NCBI RefSeq assembly: GCF_019801145.1
Contig: NZ_JAHVJQ010000005.1
Coordinates: 310,001-374,000, forward strand
DNA length: 64,000 nucleotides
Origin: Leisingera aquaemixtae
GTDB taxonomy: Bacteria > Pseudomonadota > Alphaproteobacteria > Rhodobacterales > Rhodobacteraceae
Direction of reading: 5' to 3'
The first letter of the stretch is position 1. Each line of letters starts with the position of its first letter. The notes under the pieces were generated by a model. That model ran no database searches and was not told the origin of the DNA. It was given only the letters and a program-made list of their open reading frames with translations. The position numbers were made by a program, and so were the translations under genes. Of this stretch, positions 33,851 to 46,425 are shown in pieces.

Positions 33851-34510
33851 CTAGGCAAGCTCACGCGCAATGTGACGTGCCTGGGCCTGAGCTGAGGCGA
33901 CCGAAGCTTTGTGACGCTCATCGGCGAATTCCTGATACTCGGCCGCAGCTTCGAACATGCGTTCTGCGCCCAGGTACTTGCGCAATGTGCTGATATGCGC
34001 AGAAAGGTGACCCGAGTCATTGCGAATTCCACCCTCCTCAAAGCCGAATTCGCCAGCCGATGTCAGCAGCACCAGGGTTTTGCCGGACATGATCGGTTCC
34101 AGAGGGAAGTCGCCGCGCGCCAAATCAAACGTAAATGTCTTGTTGATCCGGATGATCTGATCAAACCAAGCCTTTAGGGCTGCGGGCATGCCGTAGTTGT
34201 ACATGGGCGTCGAAATCAGAAGGATGTCGGAGCGGTCGAGCTCGTCAATCAGCGTATCAGACAAGCTGACCAAAGCGCTCTGTTCAGGAGTGCGTTCCTC
34301 TTCTGCTGTAAAGACGGACGCAATCCAATCGTTGGAAATAAAATCCGGCGGGGTCATTCCGACGTCACGCAGAATAATTTCGACGTCCGGATCAACCGTT
34401 TTCCATTCTTCCACGAAACTGTCCGCCAAAGCGCGGGAAATGGAGTTATAGGCCGCAACAGGGTTGTCGGTGCGGCGCACGCTGGCGTCAATTCTCAGGA
34501 TTGTGGTCAT
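33851..34510 (-). CDS. FMN-dependent NADH:quinone/azo oxidoreductase, AzoR family
   Basis: 219 residues of flavodoxin-like fold: the FMN-phosphate loop follows ILRIDASVRR, and the STPMYNYGMPAALKAWFD segment is the AzoR-family flavin-binding motif. It reduces quinones or azo compounds with NAD(P)H in the cytoplasm. It stands alone on the minus strand, downstream of the catabolic operon, with a 95-bp gap from it, and shares that block's more AT-rich composition. Confidence 0.85.
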   Translation of the reverse strand: MTTILRIDASVRRTDNPVAAYNSISRALADSFVEEWKTVDPDVEIILRDVGMTPPDFISNDWIASVFTAEEERTPEQSALVSLSDTLIDELDRSDILLISTPMYNYGMPAALKAWFDQIIRINKTFTFDLARGDFPLEPIMSGKTLVLLTSAGEFGFEEGGIRNDSGHLSAHISTLRKYLGAERMFEAAAEYQEFADERHKASVASAQAQARHIARELA

Positions 34511-34605
34511 CTTGTCACCTAGTCAGTTTGCAATGAACCATTCAAAGGTGAAGCCAGTGACGCGCAGGTACAAATGAAGAGAATTCTGAATAGAGTGAAC
34601 TGACT

Positions 34606-35877
34606 TCACCCATCTCTAATCGCCGAAAAAATCTTCTCCAGATGAGACGCCGTCGCAAGTACATCCGCGTCCCTGTTTGCGCCGCCGCTCAAGGATAGGC
34701 TGCTCCCCGGTCTCCGTTCTCCAAATGGAATGGAAATTGTTGGGGCATTGAGGAAAGCGGCTTTCATCGATACCGACAGGATAAGGGCGTTTTCCCGTGC
34801 AAAGACCCCCTTATCGCGGGTCACGGCCTGAACAGACGGCGGGTACGACGGCAATGTCGGGTAAAGCAGCATCTTCCCTGCCAGTTCCCTGTCAAAGTCC
34901 GGGATGAGGGCCCGCCGGATTTCCAGCAATGCCTGCAGATCTGTGCCAAGGATTGAAGCCGCCTGAGCAAGGCGATCCTGCACATTTGGGTCCAGTCTGG
35001 CCTGCTGGTCTCCGACCAAACTTGGCAGAAGACGAAAGGCTTCGGCACTCACCAGCGTTCCATAGGTTTGGAAGATCTCCGTGACACAAGTGAAACTTCG
35101 GATGTCAACCCTTTCCAATTCGATGCCATGACCGGACAAATGCTGCAGGACATGTTCGTACATTGCTTTGATTTCCGGGGTAAATCCCGCTAGGGCATCT
35201 TCCCTCAGGCACAGAATTTGACGGCAGGCGTGCCCGGTTTCTTTGCAATCCGACAAAACGCGATCCACAGCGCAAATCTGACTGACGTTTAAAGCGAGTG
35301 AGCCTGGCGTATCCAGAGAAGGCGCCAGAGGTAAAATCCCGGCGCTTTCATAGCGGTCCATAGTTGGGCGAAACCCCACCAGGCCCTGACAGGCGGCCGG
35401 AATGCGCACGGAGCCGGAGGTATCTGTGCCCAAGGCGATGTCGGCCAAGCCCAAGGCAACGGCTGACGCCGATCCGCTCGAGGACCCTCCAGGCACCATT
35501 GTGCTATCCAACGCATTCAGAGGGGTGCCGAAATGCGGATTGACTCCGAGCCCGGAGAAGGCGAACTCCGACATGTTCACATGGCCCAGAATGATCGCGC
35601 CCGCAGAACGGAGCCTGGCCACGATCGGGGCGTCATTGTCTGCTGGCTGAGGATCGATGGCCAAAGATCCCGCATGGCTTCGGAGCGCTTGCACGTCGAT
35701 ATTGGCCTTCACCGCAAGAAACTGGCCGTCCAACGGGCCAAGCAGCTTCCCTGCGGCCTGCCGCGCGGCGGCGGATCGGGCATCCTGCAACAGTCTATCT
35801 GGCGCAACGCCAAGGAATACCTCGCGCTGCGCGTCGAGCGAAGCCAGGAAGTCGCGCGCTCGTTGAAGGATATTCAT
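34606..35877 (-). CDS. Amidase, amidase-signature family
   Basis: 423 residues. The Ser-cisSer-Lys triad is visible: Lys in FLAVKANIDVQ, cis-Ser in PGGSSSGSASAVALG and nucleophile Ser in GTDTSGSVRIPAACQG. It lacks the C-terminal domain of long allophanate hydrolases. Last gene of the minus-strand operon DUF1989-amidohydrolase-deacetylase-amidase. It probably releases ammonia from an open-chain amide such as a ureido or carbamoyl acid made by the upstream enzymes (inference). The start overlaps the deacetylase stop by 4 bp. Confidence 0.85.
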   Translation of the reverse strand: MNILQRARDFLASLDAQREVFLGVAPDRLLQDARSAAARQAAGKLLGPLDGQFLAVKANIDVQALRSHAGSLAIDPQPADNDAPIVARLRSAGAIILGHVNMSEFAFSGLGVNPHFGTPLNALDSTMVPGGSSSGSASAVALGLADIALGTDTSGSVRIPAACQGLVGFRPTMDRYESAGILPLAPSLDTPGSLALNVSQICAVDRVLSDCKETGHACRQILCLREDALAGFTPEIKAMYEHVLQHLSGHGIELERVDIRSFTCVTEIFQTYGTLVSAEAFRLLPSLVGDQQARLDPNVQDRLAQAASILGTDLQALLEIRRALIPDFDRELAGKMLLYPTLPSYPPSVQAVTRDKGVFARENALILSVSMKAAFLNAPTISIPFGERRPGSSLSLSGGANRDADVLATASHLEKIFSAIRDG

Positions 35878-36761
35878 GTCGTCAGGACCGGAGCCTGATA
35901 ATAGGGCAGCTCTTCAACCCGTACGCTTTGCCGGTCTGCCTCATATTGCGTGCGCACGTGCTGCGCGATCTCTCCGAGAGTGGCGAACCAGACGTCGCCC
36001 CTGTTCAAGATAGTTTCCATCCAGTCTTCCACCTGCCGCCACCGCGCCAAACGCCCGGTCAGGAAGGGATGCCAGATGCCAATCCAGAAGCCACCTTCTT
36101 CGTATTGGGCTTCGAATTCCTCCCAAAATGGGGTCAGCCCGGCGCGTGGCCCGGCGACGGGCATCATGTAGCCAATCTCCTCAAAATGGGCGAATTGCGG
36201 CCAGTCGTCGGTCCCCCAATGCGATGGAAGTTCGACCAAAGTCCGCCCGCCGGATCGCATGAGATATGGCACATCATCCGCCATCAGCGAACTGTCATAG
36301 TCGAATTCATGCTTGTTCAGCAAGTCGATGACGGCTTGCGTCACATTGTAAACCGGCGCGCGATAGCCTTTTGGCACATTGCCCAGAACCCGCTTATGCG
36401 ACTCCAGCGCGCGTTCAAACCAATAGGCTTGTTCAGACGCGCTATGGTTTGTTGGATCTTCGTGCAAATAGCCATGATGGCCGATTTCATGACCATCATT
36501 CAGGATGGCTTGCATAGCATCTGGATATTGCTCCACGACCCATCCGGGGGCGAAGAAGGACTGTTTCAGCCCGAGACGTTTGTAGGTTTCCAGAATCCGA
36601 GGGATGGCAACCGTCGGCCCGTAGCGCCCCATGGAGATCGGATAGAGACGATCATGCCCGTCGACCGGCTTTGCGATATGGATCAGGCTGTCCGCATCGA
36701 TATCAAAGGTGATCGCACAGGCGCATCGCGCGCCGTTCGGCCAGATAATTTTCTTCTGCAT
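35874..36761 (-). CDS. Polysaccharide-deacetylase-fold hydrolase, PuuE-like
   Basis: 295 residues of the NodB/CE4 fold. Metal ligands are suggested by TFDIDADS near the start and GHEIGHHGYLHEDP (HxxxH) in the middle; IGIWHPFLTGR supplies a late His. No signal peptide, so it acts in the cytoplasm. Together with the conserved tryptophan-rich region this points to the PuuE/allantoinase-like or cyclic-imide hydrolase branch and not to a cell-wall deacetylase. In this operon it would open a ring or cleave a cyclic amide (inference). Confidence 0.78.
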   Translation of the reverse strand: MQKKIIWPNGARCACAITFDIDADSLIHIAKPVDGHDRLYPISMGRYGPTVAIPRILETYKRLGLKQSFFAPGWVVEQYPDAMQAILNDGHEIGHHGYLHEDPTNHSASEQAYWFERALESHKRVLGNVPKGYRAPVYNVTQAVIDLLNKHEFDYDSSLMADDVPYLMRSGGRTLVELPSHWGTDDWPQFAHFEEIGYMMPVAGPRAGLTPFWEEFEAQYEEGGFWIGIWHPFLTGRLARWRQVEDWMETILNRGDVWFATLGEIAQHVRTQYEADRQSVRVEELPYYQAPVLTT

Positions 36762-36776
36762 GGTCTTGCTCCTCTG

Positions 36777-38288
36777 TCACAATTGCGGGGCGTTGTTCGT
36801 CAGCCAATCGTCATACCAGCGCTGCAATGCGGATTTGACGGCGCCATATTCACTGGCGCTCAGCCTTTGATCCGCAGCGCGCTGCATGCCGTCGGTGATG
36901 TTCTGAAGAATTTTCCTTTCGTCGCACTTTTTGGCTTCGCCATGCGAAACGGCCAGTTGTCCGCCGGTGAAGACGCTCTGGATATCCGTGGATTTTGCCG
37001 AGCTGACCAACAGCTCAACCGGATCAATGCCGGGGTCCAACCAGGGCCCTTCAAGACGGCCCAGGCGCAGGATCACAAAGTCGGCGCGTTTGCCGACGGA
37101 CAGGCTTCCGATGCTGTGATCCATACCCATCAAACGCGCGCCACCCATAGTGGCCATGTCGAAAACATCCTTCGCGGTCAGGCTGGGGTTCGCCCGATCA
37201 CTTGACCAATAAAGGCTTTGCGCCAGACGCATTTCGGCGAACATATCGTCATCGCCTGCCAGGCTGGTCCCATCCATCCCCAGTGCGAGGTTAATGCCCA
37301 TCCGCTTCATCAATGGCGCGGGTGCAATGCCGGACCGCAGCCGCAAATTGGAGCTGGGATTGCACACGATATGCGCGCGCGCCTCGGCCACTCGCGCCAG
37401 ATCTTTTTCGTCCGCCCAGACCATATGCGCCAAGGATAAGCCGTCAGAGAGCAGGCCAGCTTTGCTCAGTTCTGCGATAGCACCCTGAAAACTCCAGGCC
37501 GTAGCGGACAGGTGTTGCAGCCGAGACTCCTCGGCATGGGTGTGAATGCGCTGGCCGCTTTCGCGAACCTCCCTGGCGATGTCGCGCAGGGTGTCTTGGC
37601 CCGTCCAATGCGGTGCCGTGGGGCCAAACCACACATCAGCGCATTCAGAAGCCCTGTATTCGGCATGCATCCGGGACAGAAGCCGCACAAAGCATTGCGG
37701 ATCAATACGTGCGCGCGCAACGTGCTGGCGCTGCAGTTTGCATCGCAGAACCTCGGGCAAGGTGGTCAGAAACGACTGGCTTTGCCCGTATGGATGCACA
37801 AGCTGGTTGTGCCATCTCTCGCCCGGCGCGATGGCACAGGACAGGCCAAGCCCATTATATACCGCGATTTTGTCCCTTATCTTCGCTTCGGCAAAGGCCG
37901 CTGTGTGACCCGCGGTGCAGGCATCCACAACAGCTATTACCCCATTCTTCAGCAAGCGCATTGCCGCGTATTCGGTGGCGAGGCGCGGCGCAACGTCAGC
38001 TGCGCCAGCGGAGGCGAAAATCCAAGGCTCTAACAGGTCATCCCGTATCCCTTGGTTGATCAGGTTCACCCCATAGCAATGGTGATGCGCATTCACAAAC
38101 CCGGGCTGGATCGCAGTGTTTGTGCCCGAGTGCACCCTTGCGCCGGGATAACGTGACTTTAATTCGGCCAGAGGCGCCAAGCCAGCTATTCTGCCGTCTA
38201 GAACATAAAGCGCGTAGTCGTTGTGACTGTGAAAGGCATCTTCGATGATCCAGCGGGCGGAAAATATGTCGCCGCCATCAGCCGTCAT
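36777..38288 (-). CDS. Metal-dependent amidohydrolase, TRZ/ATZ (chlorohydrolase/deaminase) type
   Basis: About 503 residues. Amidohydrolase motifs in order: PGFVNAHHHCYG, HTHAEESRLQH, LAHMVWADE, and LALGMDGTSLAGDDD, supplying the His/Asp metal and catalytic residues; the C terminus has the family's VGKRADFVILRLG. The fold covers atrazine chlorohydrolase, guanine/8-oxoguanine and isocytosine-type deaminases. The substrate is probably a nitrogen-rich aromatic ring. I chose ATG 38288; Met at 38297 is in frame and both overlap the upstream DUF1989 gene slightly. Confidence 0.85.
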   Translation of the reverse strand: MTADGGDIFSARWIIEDAFHSHNDYALYVLDGRIAGLAPLAELKSRYPGARVHSGTNTAIQPGFVNAHHHCYGVNLINQGIRDDLLEPWIFASAGAADVAPRLATEYAAMRLLKNGVIAVVDACTAGHTAAFAEAKIRDKIAVYNGLGLSCAIAPGERWHNQLVHPYGQSQSFLTTLPEVLRCKLQRQHVARARIDPQCFVRLLSRMHAEYRASECADVWFGPTAPHWTGQDTLRDIAREVRESGQRIHTHAEESRLQHLSATAWSFQGAIAELSKAGLLSDGLSLAHMVWADEKDLARVAEARAHIVCNPSSNLRLRSGIAPAPLMKRMGINLALGMDGTSLAGDDDMFAEMRLAQSLYWSSDRANPSLTAKDVFDMATMGGARLMGMDHSIGSLSVGKRADFVILRLGRLEGPWLDPGIDPVELLVSSAKSTDIQSVFTGGQLAVSHGEAKKCDERKILQNITDGMQRAADQRLSASEYGAVKSALQRWYDDWLTNNAPQL

Positions 38289-38967
38289 GAACAACAAATT
38301 CCAGCGCGCTCGGCTTGCCTTCGTCCCCGTTGACTGGAGTGATATCCTGCGGGCAGGCCGACATCACGGCGTAGACTGGCATCTCAGCTTTGAAGGTCAT
38401 GCTGTCCCCCGGCTTTGACACTGGCGCAGCCCAGGCAAGGCTGCCATCAGGGTGAACCGGGACGTTCATCCACAGATTGAAGGGCGCAGGCACATGCGGT
38501 GCTTTTTTCCCGATAGCAAGCAAGGCCTGCCTCAAGTTGTCGGCGCAATTGTCGTGGTAATCAGTGACGCCCAATTGCTTGTACCGGTTGGCATCGCAAG
38601 CGGCGATCGTTGTGTCATGAACTCCCGGCGATGTGTCTTGGGTCAGCGTCAAGAGAGGATTGCGCAGATTGCTGACCAACCTGTCACCGACCTTTGGGAA
38701 AACAGACAGAAGATCCGTATGCACGTGCGGCATTGACATATATTCATGCAGCTCTGCCGCATTGAACGCCCAGAAATCGCAGACTTGCCAGCCGGTCGGA
38801 TTGGTGATGGTCAAAGTCTGCCCGGCTGTCAAACGCACCGCGACACCGCAACGTGCTGGCACTGTATACCGTTCTGCAATGACCGGGACGCCGTCGGCAG
38901 AGACCGTGCTGTCCAGTGTTTGATTGAAACCATCGGGTTGGGAAGGGTCAAAACTTTGCATGCGCAA
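38278..38967 (-). CDS. DUF1989 (urea-carboxylase-associated) family protein
   Basis: 229 residues with DUF1989 features: VPARCGVAVRLTAGQTLTI, WQVCDFWAFNA, the Cys/His-bearing DYHDNCADNLRQAL and NLWMNVPVHPDG. Members accompany urea carboxylase or guanidine/allophanate enzymes and some bind metal; a carboxyguanidine-type activity is known for relatives. No urea carboxylase is present here. It is the first gene of the catabolic operon and overlaps the amidohydrolase. Confidence 0.82.
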   Translation of the reverse strand: MRMQSFDPSQPDGFNQTLDSTVSADGVPVIAERYTVPARCGVAVRLTAGQTLTITNPTGWQVCDFWAFNAAELHEYMSMPHVHTDLLSVFPKVGDRLVSNLRNPLLTLTQDTSPGVHDTTIAACDANRYKQLGVTDYHDNCADNLRQALLAIGKKAPHVPAPFNLWMNVPVHPDGSLAWAAPVSKPGDSMTFKAEMPVYAVMSACPQDITPVNGDEGKPSALEFVVHDG

Positions 38968-39058
38968 GAACTCCTGATTAGGGGTTCAGAAACGCATGCT
39001 TCTCGGCAATTTAGAAATGACAAAAATTCAAGCGACGGATTAGATCGTTGCCGACGCG

Positions 39059-39985
39059 CTAATCTTCAAAAAACCTTTGACCGACGGCGCTGTCGCGAAA
39101 CTCATCTGCTTGGTCCAATAGCCATTCCCGGAACACACGAACGCGTGCACGATTGGCGTAAGTTTCCGGGCAGACGAGAAAATAGCTCTTGTTCTTCAAT
39201 GCCGTGTCAAAGGGAGCGACCAGCATATTGCGTTCCAGAAAACGCGCGGCGGCCAAAAGACTGACCAGGGCCACACCATGACCATCGCTTGCCGTCAGCA
39301 AGCAGATGTGTTCCTCGGAATAGGTGACATAGGGCTCGACATCACCAGTCTGCAAGCCAGCCGCGTCCATCCAGCGCTCCCAACTCGGATCCGCATCGGA
39401 AAACCCGCTCCATCGGTATTCGATCAGACGAGACTTCAGAAGATCTTCGGGGGAGCTCAGTGACTTCGCCTTTTCCACGCTGCAGACAGGGGCCACCCAG
39501 TCATTCAAGACCCAAGCCACATTGCTGTCAGGATAATCGCCAAAGCCATACCGAATGGCCACATCCACATCGCTGGATTTGAAGTCCACCAGTTGATCGC
39601 TTGACAGAACCCTTACCGAAATCTCTGGGTATTTCTCGTAAAAGCCTCGCAGCCGCGGGCTAAGCCAATTGGCGGCAAAAGACCCGGTTGTGGAGATTGT
39701 CAATGTGCCCGCAAGGTCGTCTTCCTCCAGCGCGAGAGAGGCGGCTTCGATGTTCTTGAAGGCCTCGATGATGTGGGGCGCGTAATTGGCCCCATCCTCC
39801 GTCAGTTTCAAGGCGCGGGTCAGCCGGTGGAACAGGGGCACCCCAAGTTGATCCTCCAGCGACTTGATCTGATGGGAAATGGCAGTCGGAGTAACGCATA
39901 ATTCTTCGGCGGCATCCTTGAAACTCAGATGCCGGCAGGCCGCTTCGAAGGCCTGAATGCTTTTCAACGACGGAATCTTCGCCAT
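39059..39985 (-). CDS. LysR-family regulator, GcvA-like
   Basis: 308 residues. HTH at residues 18-45 (LSFKDAAEELCVTPTAISHQ), a GcvA-like linker (IKSLEDQLGVPLFHRLTRAL) and an effector domain. It lies upstream of the catabolic operon on the same strand and divergent from the BMP transporter operon, so it may control both. The 91-bp gap to the DUF1989 gene allows a separate promoter. Confidence 0.87.
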   Translation of the reverse strand: MAKIPSLKSIQAFEAACRHLSFKDAAEELCVTPTAISHQIKSLEDQLGVPLFHRLTRALKLTEDGANYAPHIIEAFKNIEAASLALEEDDLAGTLTISTTGSFAANWLSPRLRGFYEKYPEISVRVLSSDQLVDFKSSDVDVAIRYGFGDYPDSNVAWVLNDWVAPVCSVEKAKSLSSPEDLLKSRLIEYRWSGFSDADPSWERWMDAAGLQTGDVEPYVTYSEEHICLLTASDGHGVALVSLLAAARFLERNMLVAPFDTALKNKSYFLVCPETYANRARVRVFREWLLDQADEFRDSAVGQRFFED

Positions 39986-40067
39986 GACGCGCGGCTTTGC
40001 TCTCCTGATGCGACGCTATTTCGTCGCTCTACTCTAACCCGATTGCCAGTTCACATGTGGGCGAAAT

Positions 40068-40087
40068 TCTCAGCTGTGAGGTGAAAA
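40068..40087 (+). promoter_or_regulatory. Repeated motif upstream of the transporter ATPase gene
   Basis: TCTCAGCTGTGAGGTGAAAA, 81 bp upstream of the TTG start, recurs at 43698 with 17 of 20 bases identical and at a similar distance (88 bp) ahead of the BMP receptor gene. It contains CTCA-GCTG-TGAG, an inverted repeat. A shared operator for the LysR protein or a shared leader element are the main options. Confidence 0.5.
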
Positions 40088-40148
40088 CATCTAATTTGAG
40101 AAGATAGGGCATTCTCTCTTGAATTTGCGTGGAAGTTGGGAGGTTGTC

Positions 40149-41678
40149 TTGGATCCATTTTTGAAAGTCACCGGCATCTGCAAGTCGTTTGGCGCCGTTC
40201 GTGCATTGCACAACGTCAATCTGCTGGCCTCGAAGGGCGAGTGCATTGCGATTTTGGGCGAGAACGGAGCGGGGAAAACCACGTTCGCAAGCGTTCTGAT
40301 CGGTTTGTATCAGCCCGATAACGGCGAAATCAAACTGGGCGGAACACCTGTTTCGGTGACCAGCCCGGCAAGAGCAATTGAGCATGGGATCGGCATGATC
40401 CACCAGCATTTCAGTCTGGTCGGCGCGATGACCGCCGAAGAGAACATTCTGATCGGCTTGCCCAGCACAAAGAGGGGTGCCGAAGCGCGGGCGCGCATTC
40501 GGCAGCTTTGCAGCGACTTTGACTTTAACATCGATTTCGACATCCGCGTCACGGAAATGCCTGTGGGCATGAAGCAAAGGGTGGAAATCCTTAAGGCGCT
40601 GTTTCGCGATGTATCGATCCTGATCCTGGATGAACCCACCAGCGTTCTTGCCCCGACCGAAGTCGCGCCGTTTCTCAAAGGGGTGCGCAAGCTGGTCGCC
40701 AACGGCTGCCTTGTTTTTTTCATCAGCCACAAGCTCGATGAAATCCGCGAAATTGCCGATCGCGTCATGATAATGCGCCATGGGCGTGTCGAGGGAGTTC
40801 TTCCGGTTGCGACCACGCCCATGGCCCATATGTCAGCGCTTATGATGGGAGAAAAGTCGACCGGCGAAACGGTCGATACGCCCAAGGCCAAAAAGGCGCG
40901 CAACGACACCAGCTCAGCACCGGACGCTCTGGTTGTCTCTGATGTCTGCCTGACCGATCCAGGCGGCGCGGAAATCCTGCAAGATGTGACCCTCTCCGTG
41001 AAAGCTGGCGAAATCCTTGGAATCGCCGGGATCGACGGCAATGGCCAGACGGAGTTGAGCGAGGTGATCACCGGCCTCAAAAGGCAAACCAGCGGCACCA
41101 TCCACCTAAATGGCACGGAGATATCAAGCGCCTCCATCGCTTCGCGCATTGCAGATGGCATAGGCTTCGTGCCCGAGGACCGCCATGCCGAGGGCTTGGT
41201 CCTGTCGCTCAGTGTCGAAGAAAATATGGCATTTCGATCCATTGGCGAAGACAGGTTCATGTCTGGCGGTCTGATTTCCCGGCGCGCGATGCACGAGATC
41301 GCAAGCGACGTGGTCGCGGCCTTTGACATTAGGCCCCCAGACCCGAAATTGAACGCCTCGGCTTTATCCGGCGGCAATCAACAAAAAATCGTTCTGGCCC
41401 GTGAAGTGGCCCGGGCGCGCAATCTCTTGGTCGTCGTACAGCCGACTAAAGGGCTTGATGTCGGCGCAACGGAATTTGTTCAGAACCAGATCCGTGCTGT
41501 CGCCCAAAGCGGCGTGGGGGTTCTCTATATCTCCACTGAACTTGAACATGTGCTCGACATCTCTGACCGCGTCGCCGTGATGGCCTTTGGCCGGATCACG
41601 GGTGTTGTCGATCCAGAAAACACAACTCTTCAAGACATCGGGCTCTTGATGACTGCAGCGCCGGAGGAGGTACAATGA
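40149..41678 (+). CDS. BMP-type ABC importer ATPase, two ABC domains
   Basis: 509 residues with two ABC domains in sugar/nucleoside-importer style. Domain 1 has Walker A GENGAGKTT and Walker B ILILDEPTSVLAP. Domain 2 has GIDGNGQTE in place of Walker A, signature LSGGNQQKIVLAREV and VVVQPTKGLDVG in the Walker B region. It energises the two permeases that follow. I chose TTG at 40149: GGGAGG lies five bases upstream and the sequence opens directly with MDPFLKVTGICKSFG. An earlier TTG at 40119 lacks such a site. Confidence 0.87.
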   Translation: MDPFLKVTGICKSFGAVRALHNVNLLASKGECIAILGENGAGKTTFASVLIGLYQPDNGEIKLGGTPVSVTSPARAIEHGIGMIHQHFSLVGAMTAEENILIGLPSTKRGAEARARIRQLCSDFDFNIDFDIRVTEMPVGMKQRVEILKALFRDVSILILDEPTSVLAPTEVAPFLKGVRKLVANGCLVFFISHKLDEIREIADRVMIMRHGRVEGVLPVATTPMAHMSALMMGEKSTGETVDTPKAKKARNDTSSAPDALVVSDVCLTDPGGAEILQDVTLSVKAGEILGIAGIDGNGQTELSEVITGLKRQTSGTIHLNGTEISSASIASRIADGIGFVPEDRHAEGLVLSLSVEENMAFRSIGEDRFMSGGLISRRAMHEIASDVVAAFDIRPPDPKLNASALSGGNQQKIVLAREVARARNLLVVVQPTKGLDVGATEFVQNQIRAVAQSGVGVLYISTELEHVLDISDRVAVMAFGRITGVVDPENTTLQDIGLLMTAAPEEVQ

Positions 41679-42760
41679 ACAGATTTACCATGCAACGCCG
41701 GATTGCGATTGCTTTGCTTTTAGCACTGAGTGCTGGCGGGGTGCTGATCCTGCTGGACGGGCACAACCCGTTTGAGGCCTATAAGGTTCTGTTTCTGGAA
41801 TCCTTCCTGAATTACTGGGGTTTCTCCAATACTTTGGTCAAAGCCTCGCCGATGCTTCTGGCGGGGCTGGCCGTGATCATTCCGATGCGCGCCGGTGTGT
41901 TCAACATCGGTGGCGAGGGACAGATCTATATTGGCGGGTTGTTCGGCGCCGTCTTTGCTTTGGCGGTCCCCGATCTGCCCGGTCTATTGGGCGTGCCGCT
42001 GATATTTTTCGCCGCCGCCGTCGGCGGGGCGTTCTGGGCGGCAATTCCTGCTTATCTCAAAGCCTATCGGGGCACGAATGAGGTCATTGTCACGCTGCTG
42101 ATGAACTTCATTGCGATCCACATCGTCAGCTACGCCGTGGCCGGGCCGCTATTGGCCGAAGGCGCGCCATATCCTTATTCGGAGGAAGTCTCAGAAGCCT
42201 ATCGCCTGCCTATTCTGATGCCGCGATCTGATACCCATGTGGGCTTTGTGTTCGGGCTGGCCATGACGGTCATCTTGTATTTCTGGCTGCGCTTCACGCC
42301 ATCGGGTTTCCAGCTGGACCTTGTGGGGCGTAATGCGCGCGCTGCGGCCTATGCCGGTGTGGACCAGAAAAAGACCGTCATCCGCGCCATGTTGATTGGC
42401 GGCAGCCTTGCAGGCATGGCCGGCGCAATCGAGGTGATCGGGTTGAAGTACCGCCTGTTCCACCTGTTTAGCGATGGCTACGGCTATGACGGAATTGTCG
42501 TCGCATTCCTTGCGGCTCTTAACCCAATTGTCGCGCCTTTGACCGCGCTGTTCCTTGCCGGGCTCTCTGCCGGCGCGGGAACGATGCAACGTGCCGTCGG
42601 GGTCGACAGTTCCGTCATCGAAGTGGTCGAGGGGCTCGTCGTGGTTCTTGTCGCCGCCGCCCTCGTGACACCGCGAACCAGGTCAACATCCATTCTGAAA
42701 CCCCTGGCAAGAAACCTGCGGCTGCGCCGCCAAACACAGCGCCAAAAGAAAGAGGCATAG
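41675..42760 (+). CDS. BMP-type ABC importer permease 1
   Basis: 361 residues, about nine membrane segments, BPD_transp_2 family (AGLAVIIPMRAGVFNIGGEG; KAYRGTNEVIVTLLMNFIAI). These permeases import nucleosides or related compounds in YufP/NupP-type systems. It overlaps the ATPase by 4 bp and is preceded by GGAGG. A basic tail (RLRRQTQRQKKEA) is cytoplasmic. Confidence 0.88.
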   Translation: MNRFTMQRRIAIALLLALSAGGVLILLDGHNPFEAYKVLFLESFLNYWGFSNTLVKASPMLLAGLAVIIPMRAGVFNIGGEGQIYIGGLFGAVFALAVPDLPGLLGVPLIFFAAAVGGAFWAAIPAYLKAYRGTNEVIVTLLMNFIAIHIVSYAVAGPLLAEGAPYPYSEEVSEAYRLPILMPRSDTHVGFVFGLAMTVILYFWLRFTPSGFQLDLVGRNARAAAYAGVDQKKTVIRAMLIGGSLAGMAGAIEVIGLKYRLFHLFSDGYGYDGIVVAFLAALNPIVAPLTALFLAGLSAGAGTMQRAVGVDSSVIEVVEGLVVVLVAAALVTPRTRSTSILKPLARNLRLRRQTQRQKKEA

Positions 42761-42763
42761 GCT

Positions 42764-43696
42764 ATGATTGATCTTGTTTTGCTGGGCGACGTCCTTGCCG
42801 GAACCGCCCGATTGGGTACGCCAATTGCTTTTGCTGCCCTTGGCGGGGTGATTGCGGAACGTGGCGGGCTGTACAACATCGGCCTCGAAGGTCAGATCCT
42901 AGCCGGAGCGCTTGGTGCTGCTGCTGGTTCTTTCGCAACGGGCTCCGCCGTGATCGGGCTCGGATGCGGGATCATTTGCGGCCTGATCTCTGGCCTGCTG
43001 CTTGGGTATATGTCGGTCCGGCTGCGCATCAACCAGCTGGTTGGCGGTATCGCGCTCAACCTGCTGCTGGCCGGTCTCACAGCTTTTCTGTCCCGTCAGA
43101 TATTCGGGGCTCAGGCCGGAGGGGCGCGGGTAAAGGGGTTCTCGCAGATCGATATTCCCTTCTTGTCAGATCTTCCCGTCGTTGGCCCGTCCCTGTTTTC
43201 CCAGGATCCGCTGTTCTACCTTTTGATCGGATTGGCAATAGCAGCCTGGTTCTGGCTGATGAAATCCCACAAGGGTCTGGACCTGCGCGCCGTTGGCGAA
43301 AACCCGAAGGCTGCGGACTTGGCCGGGGTGCCTGTCTTTCGCATGCAATATCTCGCAATTGCAGTCAGCGGAGCCCTCGCGGCGCTGGCCGGGGTGCATC
43401 TGGTCTTGTCGCAAGTCTATGTGTTTGCGGAAGGCATGAGCGCGGGCAAAGGCTTCATAGCGCTTGCGGCAATCATCTTGGGACGTTGGTCGCCCATTGG
43501 CGCGATTTGCGCGGCGCTTTTCTTCGGCTTCTGTGATGCGGTGCAGTTCAAACTGCAATTCACCTCGCCAGAGATTCCCTATCAGCTCTTCCTGATCTTG
43601 CCTTACCTCGCATCGCTCATCGCACTCGTAGTCCTCGGCGCCAAGGCCAGCGCACCTGCAAGCGTCGGACTGCCCTACGACCGGGAGCATCGATAA
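42764..43696 (+). CDS. BMP-type ABC importer permease 2
   Basis: 310 residues of the second BPD_transp_2 permease (AFAALGGVIAERGGLYNIGL; GENPKAADLAGVPVFRMQY). It forms the heterodimeric channel with permease 1. It begins 3 bp after permease 1. Its stop is 2 bp before the repeated motif at 43698. Confidence 0.88.
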   Translation: MIDLVLLGDVLAGTARLGTPIAFAALGGVIAERGGLYNIGLEGQILAGALGAAAGSFATGSAVIGLGCGIICGLISGLLLGYMSVRLRINQLVGGIALNLLLAGLTAFLSRQIFGAQAGGARVKGFSQIDIPFLSDLPVVGPSLFSQDPLFYLLIGLAIAAWFWLMKSHKGLDLRAVGENPKAADLAGVPVFRMQYLAIAVSGALAALAGVHLVLSQVYVFAEGMSAGKGFIALAAIILGRWSPIGAICAALFFGFCDAVQFKLQFTSPEIPYQLFLILPYLASLIALVVLGAKASAPASVGLPYDREHR

Positions 43697-43697
43697 A

Positions 43698-43717
43698 TCT
43701 CAGCCGTGACGTGAGAA
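43698..43717 (+). promoter_or_regulatory. Second copy of the repeated motif, upstream of the BMP receptor gene
   Basis: TCTCAGCCGTGACGTGAGAA, 88 bp upstream of the BMP receptor ATG and directly after the permease 2 stop. It matches the copy at 40068 at 17 of 20 positions, suggesting the receptor has its own promoter under the same control. Confidence 0.5.
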
Positions 43718-43785
43718 ACCATCGTTTTTCACGTCGCGATCCTCCCGTCACCCTGACAACACATATCCAATATGGGAGAACAACA

Positions 43786-44739
43786 ATGCAATTGATGTCC
43801 AAACTATTGGCGGGGCTTGCGGCACTGATGTTGGCCGGGCCTGCGGCCGCTGACGGGATCGAACGCGCCGCGATCGTTATGCCCGGATCGATTTCTGATA
43901 ATGGCTGGAACCAAGCCGGATTCGAAGGTCTCACCAAGGCAGGTGAAGCGCTTGGCTTTGAAGCCGCCTTTTCCGAAAGCGTGCATCAGCCGGAACAAAT
44001 CGAAGTCCTGAGTGACTACGCACGCCGGGGATATGACCTTGTGATCGGTCACGGCGGAGAATTCCAGGACGCAGTGGAACGTGTCGCAGCCCGCTTCCCG
44101 GAAACCATGTTTATGGTGAACAACGGACTGGGCACAAAAGACAACATTGCCAACGCGGATTTCTATTTCAGCCAAATCGCTTATCTGATGGGCTACGTTG
44201 CAGGCTCCATGTCAGACACAGGCACCATCGGCATCATCGCGGCGCAGCAGTTCAAGTTCACGACCGACACGGTTGCTGGCTACGAAGCGGGCGCCAAAGC
44301 GGCCAATCCGGACGTCAGAGTTCTGGTTACCTGGACCGGCGACTGGGATGACATCGCCAAGGGCAAAGAAGCTGCCTTGAACCAAATTTCCCAAGGCGCC
44401 GATGTCGTCTGGCCGACAATGGACAGTGCGACGCTGGGCTCCATGCAGGCCGTTCAGGAAAAAGGCGTGTATGGCATCGGCATCTATCGTGATGCGATCA
44501 ACGAATGGCCGGAAATCCTGCAGTCCGCTATTCTGGATGTCCGAGGCAACATGCGGTCCTACCTGGAACTGGCAGCTGCCGGCAAACTGGAAGGTGCGCT
44601 CTACCGGGCGGATATGGGCAATGAATTGGCCATGCGGATCGGGTCGTTCCACCCAGATATCCCGGTGGGCGTTGTGGATGAAGTCAACAAACTGATCGAC
44701 GCCATGAAGTCCGGCACTTTGGTTGTAAATCCACAATAA
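43786..44739 (+). CDS. BMP-family (PnrA-like) substrate-binding protein
   Basis: 317 residues. Signal peptide MQLMSKLLAGLAALMLAGPA with AAA before the mature start DGIERAA. BMP-family features: MPGSISDNGWNQAGFEGL, GHGGEFQDAVERVA and DVVWPTMDSATLG. Members bind purine nucleosides, nucleobases or similar ligands. It is the last gene of the importer operon but has its own 89-bp leader and motif. The ATG at 43786 follows TGGGAGAAC. Confidence 0.88.
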   Translation: MQLMSKLLAGLAALMLAGPAAADGIERAAIVMPGSISDNGWNQAGFEGLTKAGEALGFEAAFSESVHQPEQIEVLSDYARRGYDLVIGHGGEFQDAVERVAARFPETMFMVNNGLGTKDNIANADFYFSQIAYLMGYVAGSMSDTGTIGIIAAQQFKFTTDTVAGYEAGAKAANPDVRVLVTWTGDWDDIAKGKEAALNQISQGADVVWPTMDSATLGSMQAVQEKGVYGIGIYRDAINEWPEILQSAILDVRGNMRSYLELAAAGKLEGALYRADMGNELAMRIGSFHPDIPVGVVDEVNKLIDAMKSGTLVVNPQ

Positions 44740-44773
44740 TGCATCCCTAATAATCGCTCCTCCTTTTACCCTC

Positions 44774-44797
44774 GCCCCCAAGTCTGGGGGCTTTTTT
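44774..44797 (+). terminator. Intrinsic terminator of the importer operon
   Basis: GCCCCCA-AGTC-TGGGGGC stem followed by TTTTTT, 34 bp after the BMP receptor stop. A textbook terminator. Confidence 0.88.
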
Positions 44798-44849
44798 ATA
44801 GCTAGAGAAGTCAATTGATCAGCCCCACCTGAGTGGTCCGGTTTGATTG

Positions 44850-45775
44850 TTAGTGCATGACCGGCCTTTGATCCATCAGAACGATGGTTTCCGGCGCGGG
44901 TGGGCGATACCCCAGAGCACTGTGTGGTCGCTTGGTGTTGTAGTGTTTCCTCCACTTTTCGATCAGGATTTGAGCCTCGCGGAGGCTGTAGAATATCTCA
45001 CCGTTGAGCAGTTCATCCATTGCCCGGCAGGCGCATGCAAAGCATGCTGCCGAAAGGGGCGGAGCCGGGCGTTGAAGCTTTCCCAGTACCCGTTCTCCCA
45101 GGGTGATCCAGGCTCGATGTAAGCGGTTTTGGCACCAACGGCTGCAATCCAGTCCCGGACAGCCTGGGCGACGAACTCAGGCCCGTTGTCAGACCGGATA
45201 CAGGCCGGGATACCGCGCAGGATGAACAGGTCGCTCAAGGCGTCGATCACGTCACCTGAGTTCAGCTTGCGCTTCACCCGGATCGCCAGGCATTCCCGAC
45301 TGAACTCATCGAGGATGTTCAGCGTGCGGAAGACCTTGCCATCCTCCGTCCGGCAATGGACAAAGTCATAGCTCCAGACGTGATGCCGGTATTCTGGCCG
45401 CAGCCGGACACAGGAGCCGTCATTCAGCCACAGACGCCCCTTCTTAGGTTGTTTCATTGGCACTTTCAGCCCCTCCCGCCGCCATAGTCGTTCGCCCCGT
45501 TTGTCGTTGACCTGCCAGCCTGCCCCTCTCAGCAATGCTGCGATCCGCCGATAGCCGTAGCGGCCATACTGGCGGGCAAGCACGATCATGTCCGCAACCA
45601 GGCGTGCTTCGTCCGCCCGGCTCTTGGGCGGCTTGCGCTGCGTGGATCTGTGTTGCTTCAGGGCGCGGCAGGCGCGCCGCTCAGACACCCTGAACAGGCT
45701 GCGCACATGGTCGAGGCAGGCCCGGCGGCGGGCGGGGCTCAGGGGCTCCGCCCGTTCAGGCCTGAATTGATCCAC
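44850..45775 (-). pseudogene. IS3 OrfB transposase, frameshifted by a small palindrome
   Basis: The DDE integrase core is recognisable (HHVWSYDFVHCRTEDGKVF; CIRSDNGPEFVAQAV; SPWENGYWESFNARLR). After Asn-Ala-Arg-Leu-Arg, 41 extra bases shift the frame, and the current protein ends at 44963 with unrelated residues. In the other frame the expected ending resumes beyond the insert (DELLNGEIFYSLREAQILIE, then HYNTKRPHSALGY) and stops at 44850. The enzyme should be inactive or much weakened. Confidence 0.85.
45018..45058. repeat. 41-bp palindromic insert inside transposase
   Basis: The insert contains CGGCAGGCGCATGC (45025-45038), AAA, GCATGCTGCCG (45042-45052): a stem with a 3-nt bulge. Removing about 41 bp restores the transposase frame across the junction, so the piece was gained by the element. 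It resembles a small palindromic repeat of the REP/MITE kind; the class is not identified. Confidence 0.65.
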
Positions 45776-45786
45776 AGGATCAATTC

Positions 45787-46071
45787 CTAGACGGCCATCA
45801 CTCCCTTCGCAGCTTCCGTCAGGATGAGCTTGTCCAGGGTCAGGTCCGAGACGGTACGACGCAGCCTTTCGTTTTCTTTCTGCAATCGTTTGAGTTCCCT
45901 GAGTTGGTCGGTTCCCTTCCCGCCATACTGTTTGCGCCAGTGGTAATAGGTCTGCTCGGTGATGCGCACTTCGCGGATCGCATCCACCCGCGCCATCCCT
46001 TGCCCGACAAGCACCTCAACCTGCCGCAGCTTCGTGACAATTTCTTCGGGTTTGTGCCGCTTCGTTCCCAT
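45787..46071 (-). CDS. IS3-family OrfA, helix-turn-helix protein
   Basis: 94 residues: an HTH (VGQGMARVDAIREVRITEQT, then YYHWRKQYGG) followed by a leucine-zipper-like helix (LRELKRLQKENERLRRTV), the standard OrfA of IS3 elements. It would pair with OrfB through a programmed frameshift, but OrfB is broken here. Confidence 0.87.
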   Translation of the reverse strand: MGTKRHKPEEIVTKLRQVEVLVGQGMARVDAIREVRITEQTYYHWRKQYGGKGTDQLRELKRLQKENERLRRTVSDLTLDKLILTEAAKGVMAV

Positions 46072-46200
46072 TCTGATCCTCCGTTTAACTAAACATAACG
46101 GCGGACCACTTCACTGGGGGAGGATCAGGGGCGCGCGGATTGCATATCCCAGGAGTCGTGGCAGGGCATCGACGGGCTGCGCCCACCCTGCTTTGCCCTC

Positions 46201-46348: not shown

Positions 46349-46425
46349 TGGCGGACCGAGGAGGATTCGAACCCCCGACCCCTTGATTCGTAGTCAAGTA
46401 CTCTATCCAGCTGAGCTATCGGTCC
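46349..46425 (-). tRNA. tRNA-Arg (anticodon ACG)
   Basis: 77 nt including encoded CCA. The 7-bp acceptor stem is GGACCGA / TCGGTCC; the D arm is AGCTCAGCTGGATAGAGT; the anticodon loop CTACGAA reads ACG within the stem CTTGA/TCAAG; the T arm contains GGTTCGAATCC. The 3' end faces the accessory block at lower coordinates, the usual orientation for islands inserted at a tRNA. Confidence 0.95.

What the first reader, a model, noticed from the sequence alone, without database searches (positions are those of the whole stretch)
34606..44739. Uncharacterised catabolic block for a nitrogen-rich ring compound
A minus-strand operon (DUF1989, TRZ/ATZ-type amidohydrolase, PuuE-like CE4-fold hydrolase, amidase) lies beside a LysR gene and a divergent BMP-family ABC importer. 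The logical series is import, deamination or dechlorination, ring opening, amide hydrolysis. BMP importers take nucleosides or bases, and the enzyme folds fit purine, pyrimidine, triazine, hydantoin or creatinine-like chemistry. The combination lacks urea carboxylase, urease or uric acid enzymes, so it does not match a standard pathway I know. The substrate is not determined.
Basis: partly seen in the sequence, partly recalled or inferred. Interest (0 to 1): 0.7.

Follow-up and report, generated by a model that had tools for sequence, protein, structure and literature searches.

The report
Mobile nitrogen-ring breakdown gene cassette
A marine bacterium carries an 11-kilobase block of genes, recently passed between species, that most likely imports a small nitrogen-rich ring molecule and cuts it up by hydrolysis to harvest its nitrogen; the molecule itself is still unknown.

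Summary
The block is larger than reported: a fifth enzyme gene, an FMN/NAD(P)H reductase (azoR, 33851-34510), belongs to it. The unit 33852-44815 recurs at 95.7-97.0% DNA identity in five Ruegeria/Roseobacter genomes without the window's flanks (neighbouring chromosome in three relatives: 72-74%), so it moved recently; all ten genes look purifying-selected. Comparison gives a core of azoR, amidase, CE4 and DUF1989 that recurs in Rhodobacterales and Hyphomicrobiales with interchangeable importers (BMP, NCS1, Pot, Liv). The amidohydrolase is the variable part: it is not beside the core on an Aminobacter plasmid whose BMP importer has the same five pocket residues, and related CE4 genes pair instead with a FCY1-type cytosine deaminase, twice near creatinase. 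The CE4 enzyme is not PuuE: it keeps the metal ligands of the HpPgdA/cyclic-imidase group, whose fungal relative HxnM works with an amidase. Best reading: import of a nucleobase-sized amino-N-heterocycle, deamination to a cyclic imide or ureide, ring opening by CE4, amide hydrolysis. DUF1989 (conserved zinc-site residues) and the reductase have unassigned steps. No substrate is shown; the paper searches run found no characterised pathway with this gene set.

The parts
33852..44815 (.). Mobile unit (cassette): stretch shared at 95.7-97.0% DNA identity with five other genomes, in which the window's flanks do not align
33851..34510 (-). azoR: flavodoxin-fold FMN-dependent NAD(P)H reductase, last gene of the operon
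   Evidence: PF02525; kept in types A, A', C and on three rhizobial plasmids
34606..35877 (-). Amidase-signature hydrolase (Lys57, Ser132-134 and Ser156 motif)
   Evidence: PF01425; residues
35874..36761 (-). CE4-fold hydrolase with metal ligands Asp24, His96, His100 and Asp22, His231: putative cyclic imide/ureide hydrolase
36777..38288 (-). Amidohydrolase (TRZ-ATZ/deaminase type), 503 aa, putative deaminase; His67, His69, His250, Glu253, His287, Asp338 kept (numbered on the 502-aa read 36777-38285)
38278..38961 (-). DUF1989 protein, 227 aa, with Zn-site residues Cys124, His138, Cys141, Cys205, Asp208 (numbered on the 229-aa ORF)
38968..39058 (.). LysR-DUF1989 gap with a conserved stretch TGAATTTTTGTCATTTCT; candidate operator (inference)
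39059..39985 (-). LysR regulator, GcvA subfamily
   Evidence: PRK11139 304.9 bits against cut-off 288
39986..40118 (.). Divergent LysR-ABC intergenic region with conserved blocks; candidate operator/promoters (inference)
40119..41678 (+). ABC importer ATPase (two ABC stretches)
41675..42760 (+). ABC permease 1
42764..43696 (+). ABC permease 2
43786..44739 (+). BMP/PnrA-family solute receptor; aromatic pair Trp66/Trp212 and Asp238 in the AtzT-aligned pocket (numbered on the 342-aa ORF from 43711)
44816..46128 (-). IS3-type element (family name recalled) abutting the unit, transposase ORF 44963-45775; flank, not part of the pathway

Best explanation
The block is a horizontally moved nitrogen-scavenging cassette for a nucleobase-sized N-heterocycle. 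The BMP-type ABC importer takes up a planar ring compound (inferred from the aromatic pair and the family). The amidohydrolase removes an exocyclic amino group (inferred from fold and motifs) and leaves a cyclic amide, imide or ureide. The metal-dependent CE4 enzyme opens that ring by hydrolysis (inferred from residues and the HxnM precedent). The amidase splits the resulting half-amide or ureido acid and frees ammonia (inferred). DUF1989 is a Cys/His/Asp metal enzyme of the pathway core, most likely a second C-N hydrolysis (deimination) step; the FMN reductase probably reduces a ring or quinone-like intermediate (both guesses). LysR switches both transcription units (inferred). Shown: gene content, conservation of order, selection, mobility, conserved catalytic residues. 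Not shown: any substrate, any activity, the order of steps.
Against: On three rhizobial plasmids the core has no amidohydrolase in the stretches viewed, so it may not act on the imported ring, or the deaminase there is unlinked. Relatives of the amidohydrolase at 33-36% identity show none of the partners (0 of 13 loci, some of them short). The CE4 enzymes of the hydantoin-racemase loci are a different, PuuE-like subgroup, so they do not support ureide chemistry for this one. One CE4 relative at 45% sits with a flavin monooxygenase and a deacylase instead. Apart from LysR, none of the NCBIfam rows shown for these proteins (at most 25 each) passes its cut-off. All chemistry is by homology.
Confidence: 0.6

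Rival explanations
1. Creatinine/hydantoin-type substrate: the amidohydrolase deiminates a cyclic guanidine (creatinine, glycocyamidine or a natural analogue) to a hydantoin, CE4 acts as an ATP-independent hydantoinase, and the amidase as carbamoylase.
For: Related CE4 genes pair with a cytosine-deaminase-type gene; in L125 and L128 a GbdR-like regulator (below its cut-off) and a creatinase (done on the L125 protein; the L128 one is 86% identical) lie close by, and in L133 a creatinase lies near a related set. A ureohydrolase joins CE4 in 5 of 9 type-D loci. Distant amidohydrolase relatives lie near hydantoin racemase-family genes in 13 of 80 loci, four of these weakly.
Against: Creatinase occurs in 19 of 19 genomes checked, so only closeness counts, and it is seen in 2 of 10 type-B loci. 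No creatinase in the window block; the own creatinase is on another contig. Type B lacks amidase and azoR in the mapped stretches. CE4 of the hydantoin-racemase loci is another subgroup.
Confidence: 0.22
2. Aminopyridine/hydroxypyridine-type substrate: the ring is deaminated, a quinone-like intermediate is kept reduced by azoR, a cyclic imide such as a glutarimide is opened by CE4 and split by the amidase, as in the fungal nicotinate pathway.
For: HxnM (CE4) plus HxnN (amidase) plus an FMN reductase HxnT in the fungal nicotinate pathway (PMC9304392 and PMC8478523, passages). azoR in the core. SnoaL-like cyclase and VOC genes in the sister operon; PMC9304392 says that Rhodococcus and Arthrobacter open trihydroxypyridine with a polyketide cyclase.
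Against: No ring hydroxylase or oxygenase in the block; HxnT is OYE-related and azoR is flavodoxin-type; HxnM belongs to the HpPgdA-like group, and the one such row in the CE4 tree (L017) lies on a very long branch. The molybdenum enzyme on pSR7 is of the DMSO-reductase kind, not a hydroxylase (Pfam; kind recalled).
Confidence: 0.18
3. s-Triazine-like pathway (melamine, ammeline, hydroxyatrazine) with an AtzT-like importer.
Against: No cyanuric acid hydrolase among the ten genes; amidase far below AtzE and allophanate hydrolase cut-offs; AtzT residues Glu165, Asn218 and Asn220 are replaced by Phe, Thr and Asp in the alignment.
Confidence: 0.05
4. Nucleoside or nucleobase salvage rather than ring breakdown.
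For: BMP and NCS1 families import nucleosides or bases (family knowledge; NCS1).
Against: No nucleoside hydrolase, phosphorylase or phosphoribosyltransferase among the ten genes; CE4 and amidase have no salvage role known to me.
Confidence: 0.05

Closest known systems
Fungal nicotinate pathway lower part: HxnM cyclic imidase + HxnN amidase (Aspergillus nidulans)
   Same: A CE4-fold hydrolase opens a cyclic imide and an amidase-signature enzyme splits the half-amide; an FMN reductase is in the pathway
   Different: HxnM is HpPgdA-like; there are oxygenases and dehydrogenases; no DUF1989, amino-group deaminase or BMP importer in the passages seen
s-Triazine pathway with AtzT importer (Pseudomonas ADP)
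   Same: BMP receptor, TRZ/ATZ-type amidohydrolase and amidase-signature enzyme
   Different: No AtzD here, and no AtzE- or AtzF-grade amidase; has CE4, DUF1989 and azoR; receptor pocket residues differ
Uric acid/allantoin pathway (PuuE allantoinase)
   Same: CE4 fold on the PuuE/HpPgdA side of the family
   Different: CE4 scores 70.6 bits against a 424.6 cut-off and keeps metal ligands; no urate enzymes in the block
Carboxyguanidine deiminase CgdAB and TMAO demethylase (DUF1989 enzymes)
   Same: DUF1989 domain and zinc-site residues
   Different: One DUF1989 gene only; no guanidine carboxylase; no GcvT domain; below all three cut-offs
Creatinine/creatine breakdown
   Same: A related CE4 gene lies beside a cytosine-deaminase-type gene, and twice near creatinase, in other genomes
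   Different: No creatinase or creatininase in this block

Membership tests
PuuE allantoinase | NCBIfam TIGR03212 curated cut-off (424.6 bits) | tested here: not met
   70.6 bits
PuuE allantoinase | Active site without a bound metal (PMC3084791: HpPgdA binds a metal 'at variance with PuuE') | tested here: not met
   Ligand residues Asp24, His96, His100 are present; metal binding itself not tested
HpPgdA/HxnM cyclic imidase group | Metal ligands Asp14, His86, His90 and Asp12, His247 | tested here: met
   Aligned residues Asp24, His96, His100, Asp22, His231; kept in 29 of 29 type A-D rows
HpPgdA/HxnM cyclic imidase group | Same sequence subfamily | tested here: inconclusive
   3qbu E 2e-29, but 3rxz ('Polysaccharide deacetylase') is nearer, E 4e-54; the HpPgdA-like row of L017 lies on a long branch
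HpPgdA/HxnM cyclic imidase group | Imidase activity | not testable with these tools
   needs an assay
s-Triazine pathway (AtzE/AtzF/TRZ-ATZ hydrolase) | Curated cut-offs for AtzE (425.75), allophanate hydrolase (511.05), TRZ/ATZ family hydrolase (540) | tested here: not met
   156.2, 178.4 and 199.2 bits
AtzT purine/hydroxyatrazine receptor | Aromatic sandwich Tyr45/Trp194 | tested here: met
   Trp66/Trp212 by alignment; chain-to-paper numbering offset of 5 worked out by me
AtzT purine/hydroxyatrazine receptor | Base-reading residues Glu165, Asn218, Asn220 | tested here: not met
   Phe183, Thr236, Asp238 by alignment
Carboxyguanidine deiminase CgdAB (UAAP1/2) | TIGR03424 (284.7 bits) or TIGR03425 (205.95 bits) | tested here: not met
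   101 and 55.7 bits
DUF1989 zinc enzymes | Zn residues Cys263, Cys279, Cys343, with His276 and Asp346 nearby (Tdm numbering, PMC12560246) | tested here: met
   Cys124, Cys141, Cys205, His138, Asp208; kept in 21 of 21 rows (window and 20 chosen loci)
GcvA-type LysR regulator | PRK11139 cut-off 288 bits | tested here: met
   304.9 bits
Putative vitamin B6 BMP importer | NF047927 cut-off 400 bits | tested here: not met
   118.7 bits
Amidohydrolase superfamily, deaminase type | HxH, HxxE, H and D active-site motifs (recalled) | tested here: met
   His67/His69, His250/Glu253, His287, Asp338, same in 11 of 11 rows

The most novel reading that the evidence does not exclude
A hydrolytic N-heterocycle pathway not yet described: a core of azoR, DUF1989, a new metal-dependent CE4 ring-opening clade and an amidase, spread over at least two orders on plasmids and mobile units, into which importers and first-step deaminases (amidohydrolase or FCY1 type) are plugged; DUF1989 would be a third kind of activity of that family, a ring or guanidine deiminase.
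Probability: 0.35. Interest if true: 0.65.

Novelty: new variant of a known kind. Interest (0 to 1): 0.48.

Why it matters
It would give a function to a DUF1989 branch that includes the solved but functionally unassigned structure 3oru/3siy and to a CE4 clade annotated as polysaccharide deacetylase in the plasmid records viewed, and it would name a nitrogen compound used by marine and root-nodule bacteria. The receptor, whose five aligned pocket residues are the same in the one Hyphomicrobiales copy compared, makes the substrate directly testable by a ligand screen.

Tried and rejected
Dechlorination: no evidence; by fold the triazine hydrolases are level with deaminases. PuuE/allantoin: rejected by score and metal ligands. 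Molybdenum hydroxylase as an alternative first step on pSR7: I expected this from the annotation, but Pfam shows a DMSO-reductase-type enzyme, so dropped. Hydantoin-racemase loci as direct support: weakened because their CE4 is another subgroup. Creatinase as a genome marker: useless, 19 of 19 genomes have it. Creatininase family: 7 of 19 genomes; the own copy's surroundings show no tie to this operon. Transposon ends: no terminal inverted repeats in the three loci tested and no convincing target repeat (one 5-base match in L015). Unit in the plasmid collection at DNA level: no match. Empty site beside tRNA-Arg in two relatives: only the tRNA and the far flank align, so the insertion point is not defined. 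CE4 hits not mapped: 6 of the 30 places (G101, G174, G206, G223, G285, G352); 5 of 8 new places (L176-L180) were mapped but fit no type; of 429 plasmid records with a CE4 match I viewed 9, one of them unannotated. Part of the output was cut. Literature; only open-licence PMC papers are held.
Full report
What is there. The divergent plus-strand unit is a BMP-type ABC importer (40119-44739). DUF1989/amidohydrolase and amidase/CE4 overlap by 11 and 4 bases. G+C is 0.57-0.58 in the three 4-kb steps from 32 to 44 kb and 0.61-0.67 in the others.

Mobility and selection. Window 33852-44815 aligns at 95.7-97.0% identity with L012-L016 (Ruegeria atlantica HKCCD9150, Roseobacter insulae, Ruegeria sp. 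2205SS24-7, Ruegeria sp. R13_0, R. arenilitoris; the L014 match ends at 44797), and no other window stretch over 150 bases aligns with these loci, which hold at most 10 kb on either side. Among the five themselves the shared piece is 11.0-11.5 kb in 7 of 9 pairs compared, with the same azoR-side end in 6, and 12.8-13.0 kb plus a further 1.5 kb in the pairs L015-L014 and L015-L016. A 2.8-kb piece of the window's flanking chromosome is only 72-74% identical to three relatives. So the unit moved recently. No recombinase lies among its ten genes; an IS3-type element abuts it in the window. dN/dS against L012-L016 is 0.03-0.40 for every gene; the amidohydrolase (0.24-0.40) and the amidase (0.21-0.33) are highest.

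How common. At E <= 1e-60 the amidohydrolase occurs in 6 of 390 genomes of the order, own genome included. The CE4 protein at E <= 1e-50 occurs in 29 of 390 and at E <= 1e-90 in 9 of 385 of the class sample, own genome included in both.

Operon types (labels are mine). Type A, this block: 6 of the 7 loci with amidohydrolase identity of at least 60%; the seventh, L017, has LysR-DUF1989-amidohydrolase only. Type A': DUF1989-amidohydrolase-CE4-amidase-(NTF2/SnoaL-like)-azoR with SnoaL, VOC and SDR genes in most and a Liv- or Pot-type importer: L019-L021, L122 and plasmids of Alisedimentitalea scapharcae and strain M382. Type C: Pot importer-amidase-CE4-DUF1989 with azoR on the other strand: L124, L126 and a Leisingera methylohalidivorans plasmid; L123 lacks amidase and azoR. 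Rhizobial forms: Aminobacter sp. SR38 pSR7 has BMP importer-azoR-amidase-DUF1989-CE4; R. leguminosarum WSM1325 and Phyllobacterium plasmids have azoR-amidase-CE4-DUF1989 beside an NCS1 permease (PF02133) and a VOC gene; the Phyllobacterium azoR match is in two pieces. Type B: Pot importer-CE4 in 10 loci (L125, L127-L132, L173-L175), cytosine-deaminase-type gene next to CE4 in 8 of 10, DUF1989 near in 3, creatinase near in 2. Type D, nine loci L133-L141: SDR genes in 8, a Ssu-type permease in 6, a close ureohydrolase in 5. Core across A, A', C and rhizobial forms: azoR, amidase, CE4, DUF1989. Six of the 30 CE4 places were not mapped, and five of eight new places fit no type.

Reading. Importers of the BMP and NCS1 kinds, two unrelated deaminases going with the same CE4 kind, and an imidase-amidase pair point to a nucleobase-sized ring that is deaminated, opened and de-amidated for nitrogen. 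The substrate stays open: creatinine- or hydantoin-like and pyridine-like rings are both possible.

Results against. The core occurs without it beside it on three rhizobial plasmids. A CE4 relative (45%) on an Aminobacter niigataensis plasmid sits with a flavin monooxygenase and a deacylase. Creatinase is in every one of 19 genomes checked. No NCBIfam row shown passes its cut-off except LysR's.

Known or new. Searches of open-licence papers for the gene set gave no paper; the DUF1989 list (20 of 26 shown, three opened at passages) shows no such operon in titles or abstract starts. Each enzyme kind is known; the combination and the core are, as far as these searches go, undescribed.

Noticed in passing
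L017:1505-7837; L159:14589-18879; L180:7960-9434: A second, unrelated cluster in Ruegeria profundi (NCS1-like permease, amidase, HpPgdA-like CE4, small MCGLCGIFG protein, CobW-type GTPase, solute-binding protein); parts recur on a Leisingera methylohalidivorans plasmid and in G556. Looks like a bacterial cyclic-imide pathway near HxnM. Several family names are read by eye.
   Followed up: no
window 44816-46128 and 46349-46425: IS3-type element directly at the end of the unit, then tRNA-Arg(acg); a possible insertion hotspot
   Followed up: partly
L056, L058, L062, L065, L068, L070, L072, L086, L088: Distant amidohydrolase relatives in clusters with hydantoin racemase-family genes and, in some, PuuE-like CE4, amidase, hydantoinase or carbamoylase genes: perhaps undescribed hydantoin/ureide clusters (names partly by eye)
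   Followed up: partly
L133 region; also CE4 hits in G223 and G285: CE4 matches with an in-frame TGA, perhaps decaying copies
   Followed up: no
G000:C3:514255-514695 (L152): Own genome has a stand-alone cytosine-deaminase-type gene (87% to the type-B one), with no CE4 gene in the 19 kb viewed
   Followed up: partly
L125, L127, L128, L130-L133, L135, L174, L175: APRT-like and BtpA-like genes lie with the Pot-CE4 set; role unknown
   Followed up: no
L161:5840-11762 (Aminobacter niigataensis DMFA1 plasmid p1): CE4 relative (45%) between a 4-hydroxyphenylacetate-3-hydroxylase-type monooxygenase, flavin reductases and an ArgE/DapE deacylase: another ring-breaking cluster
   Followed up: no
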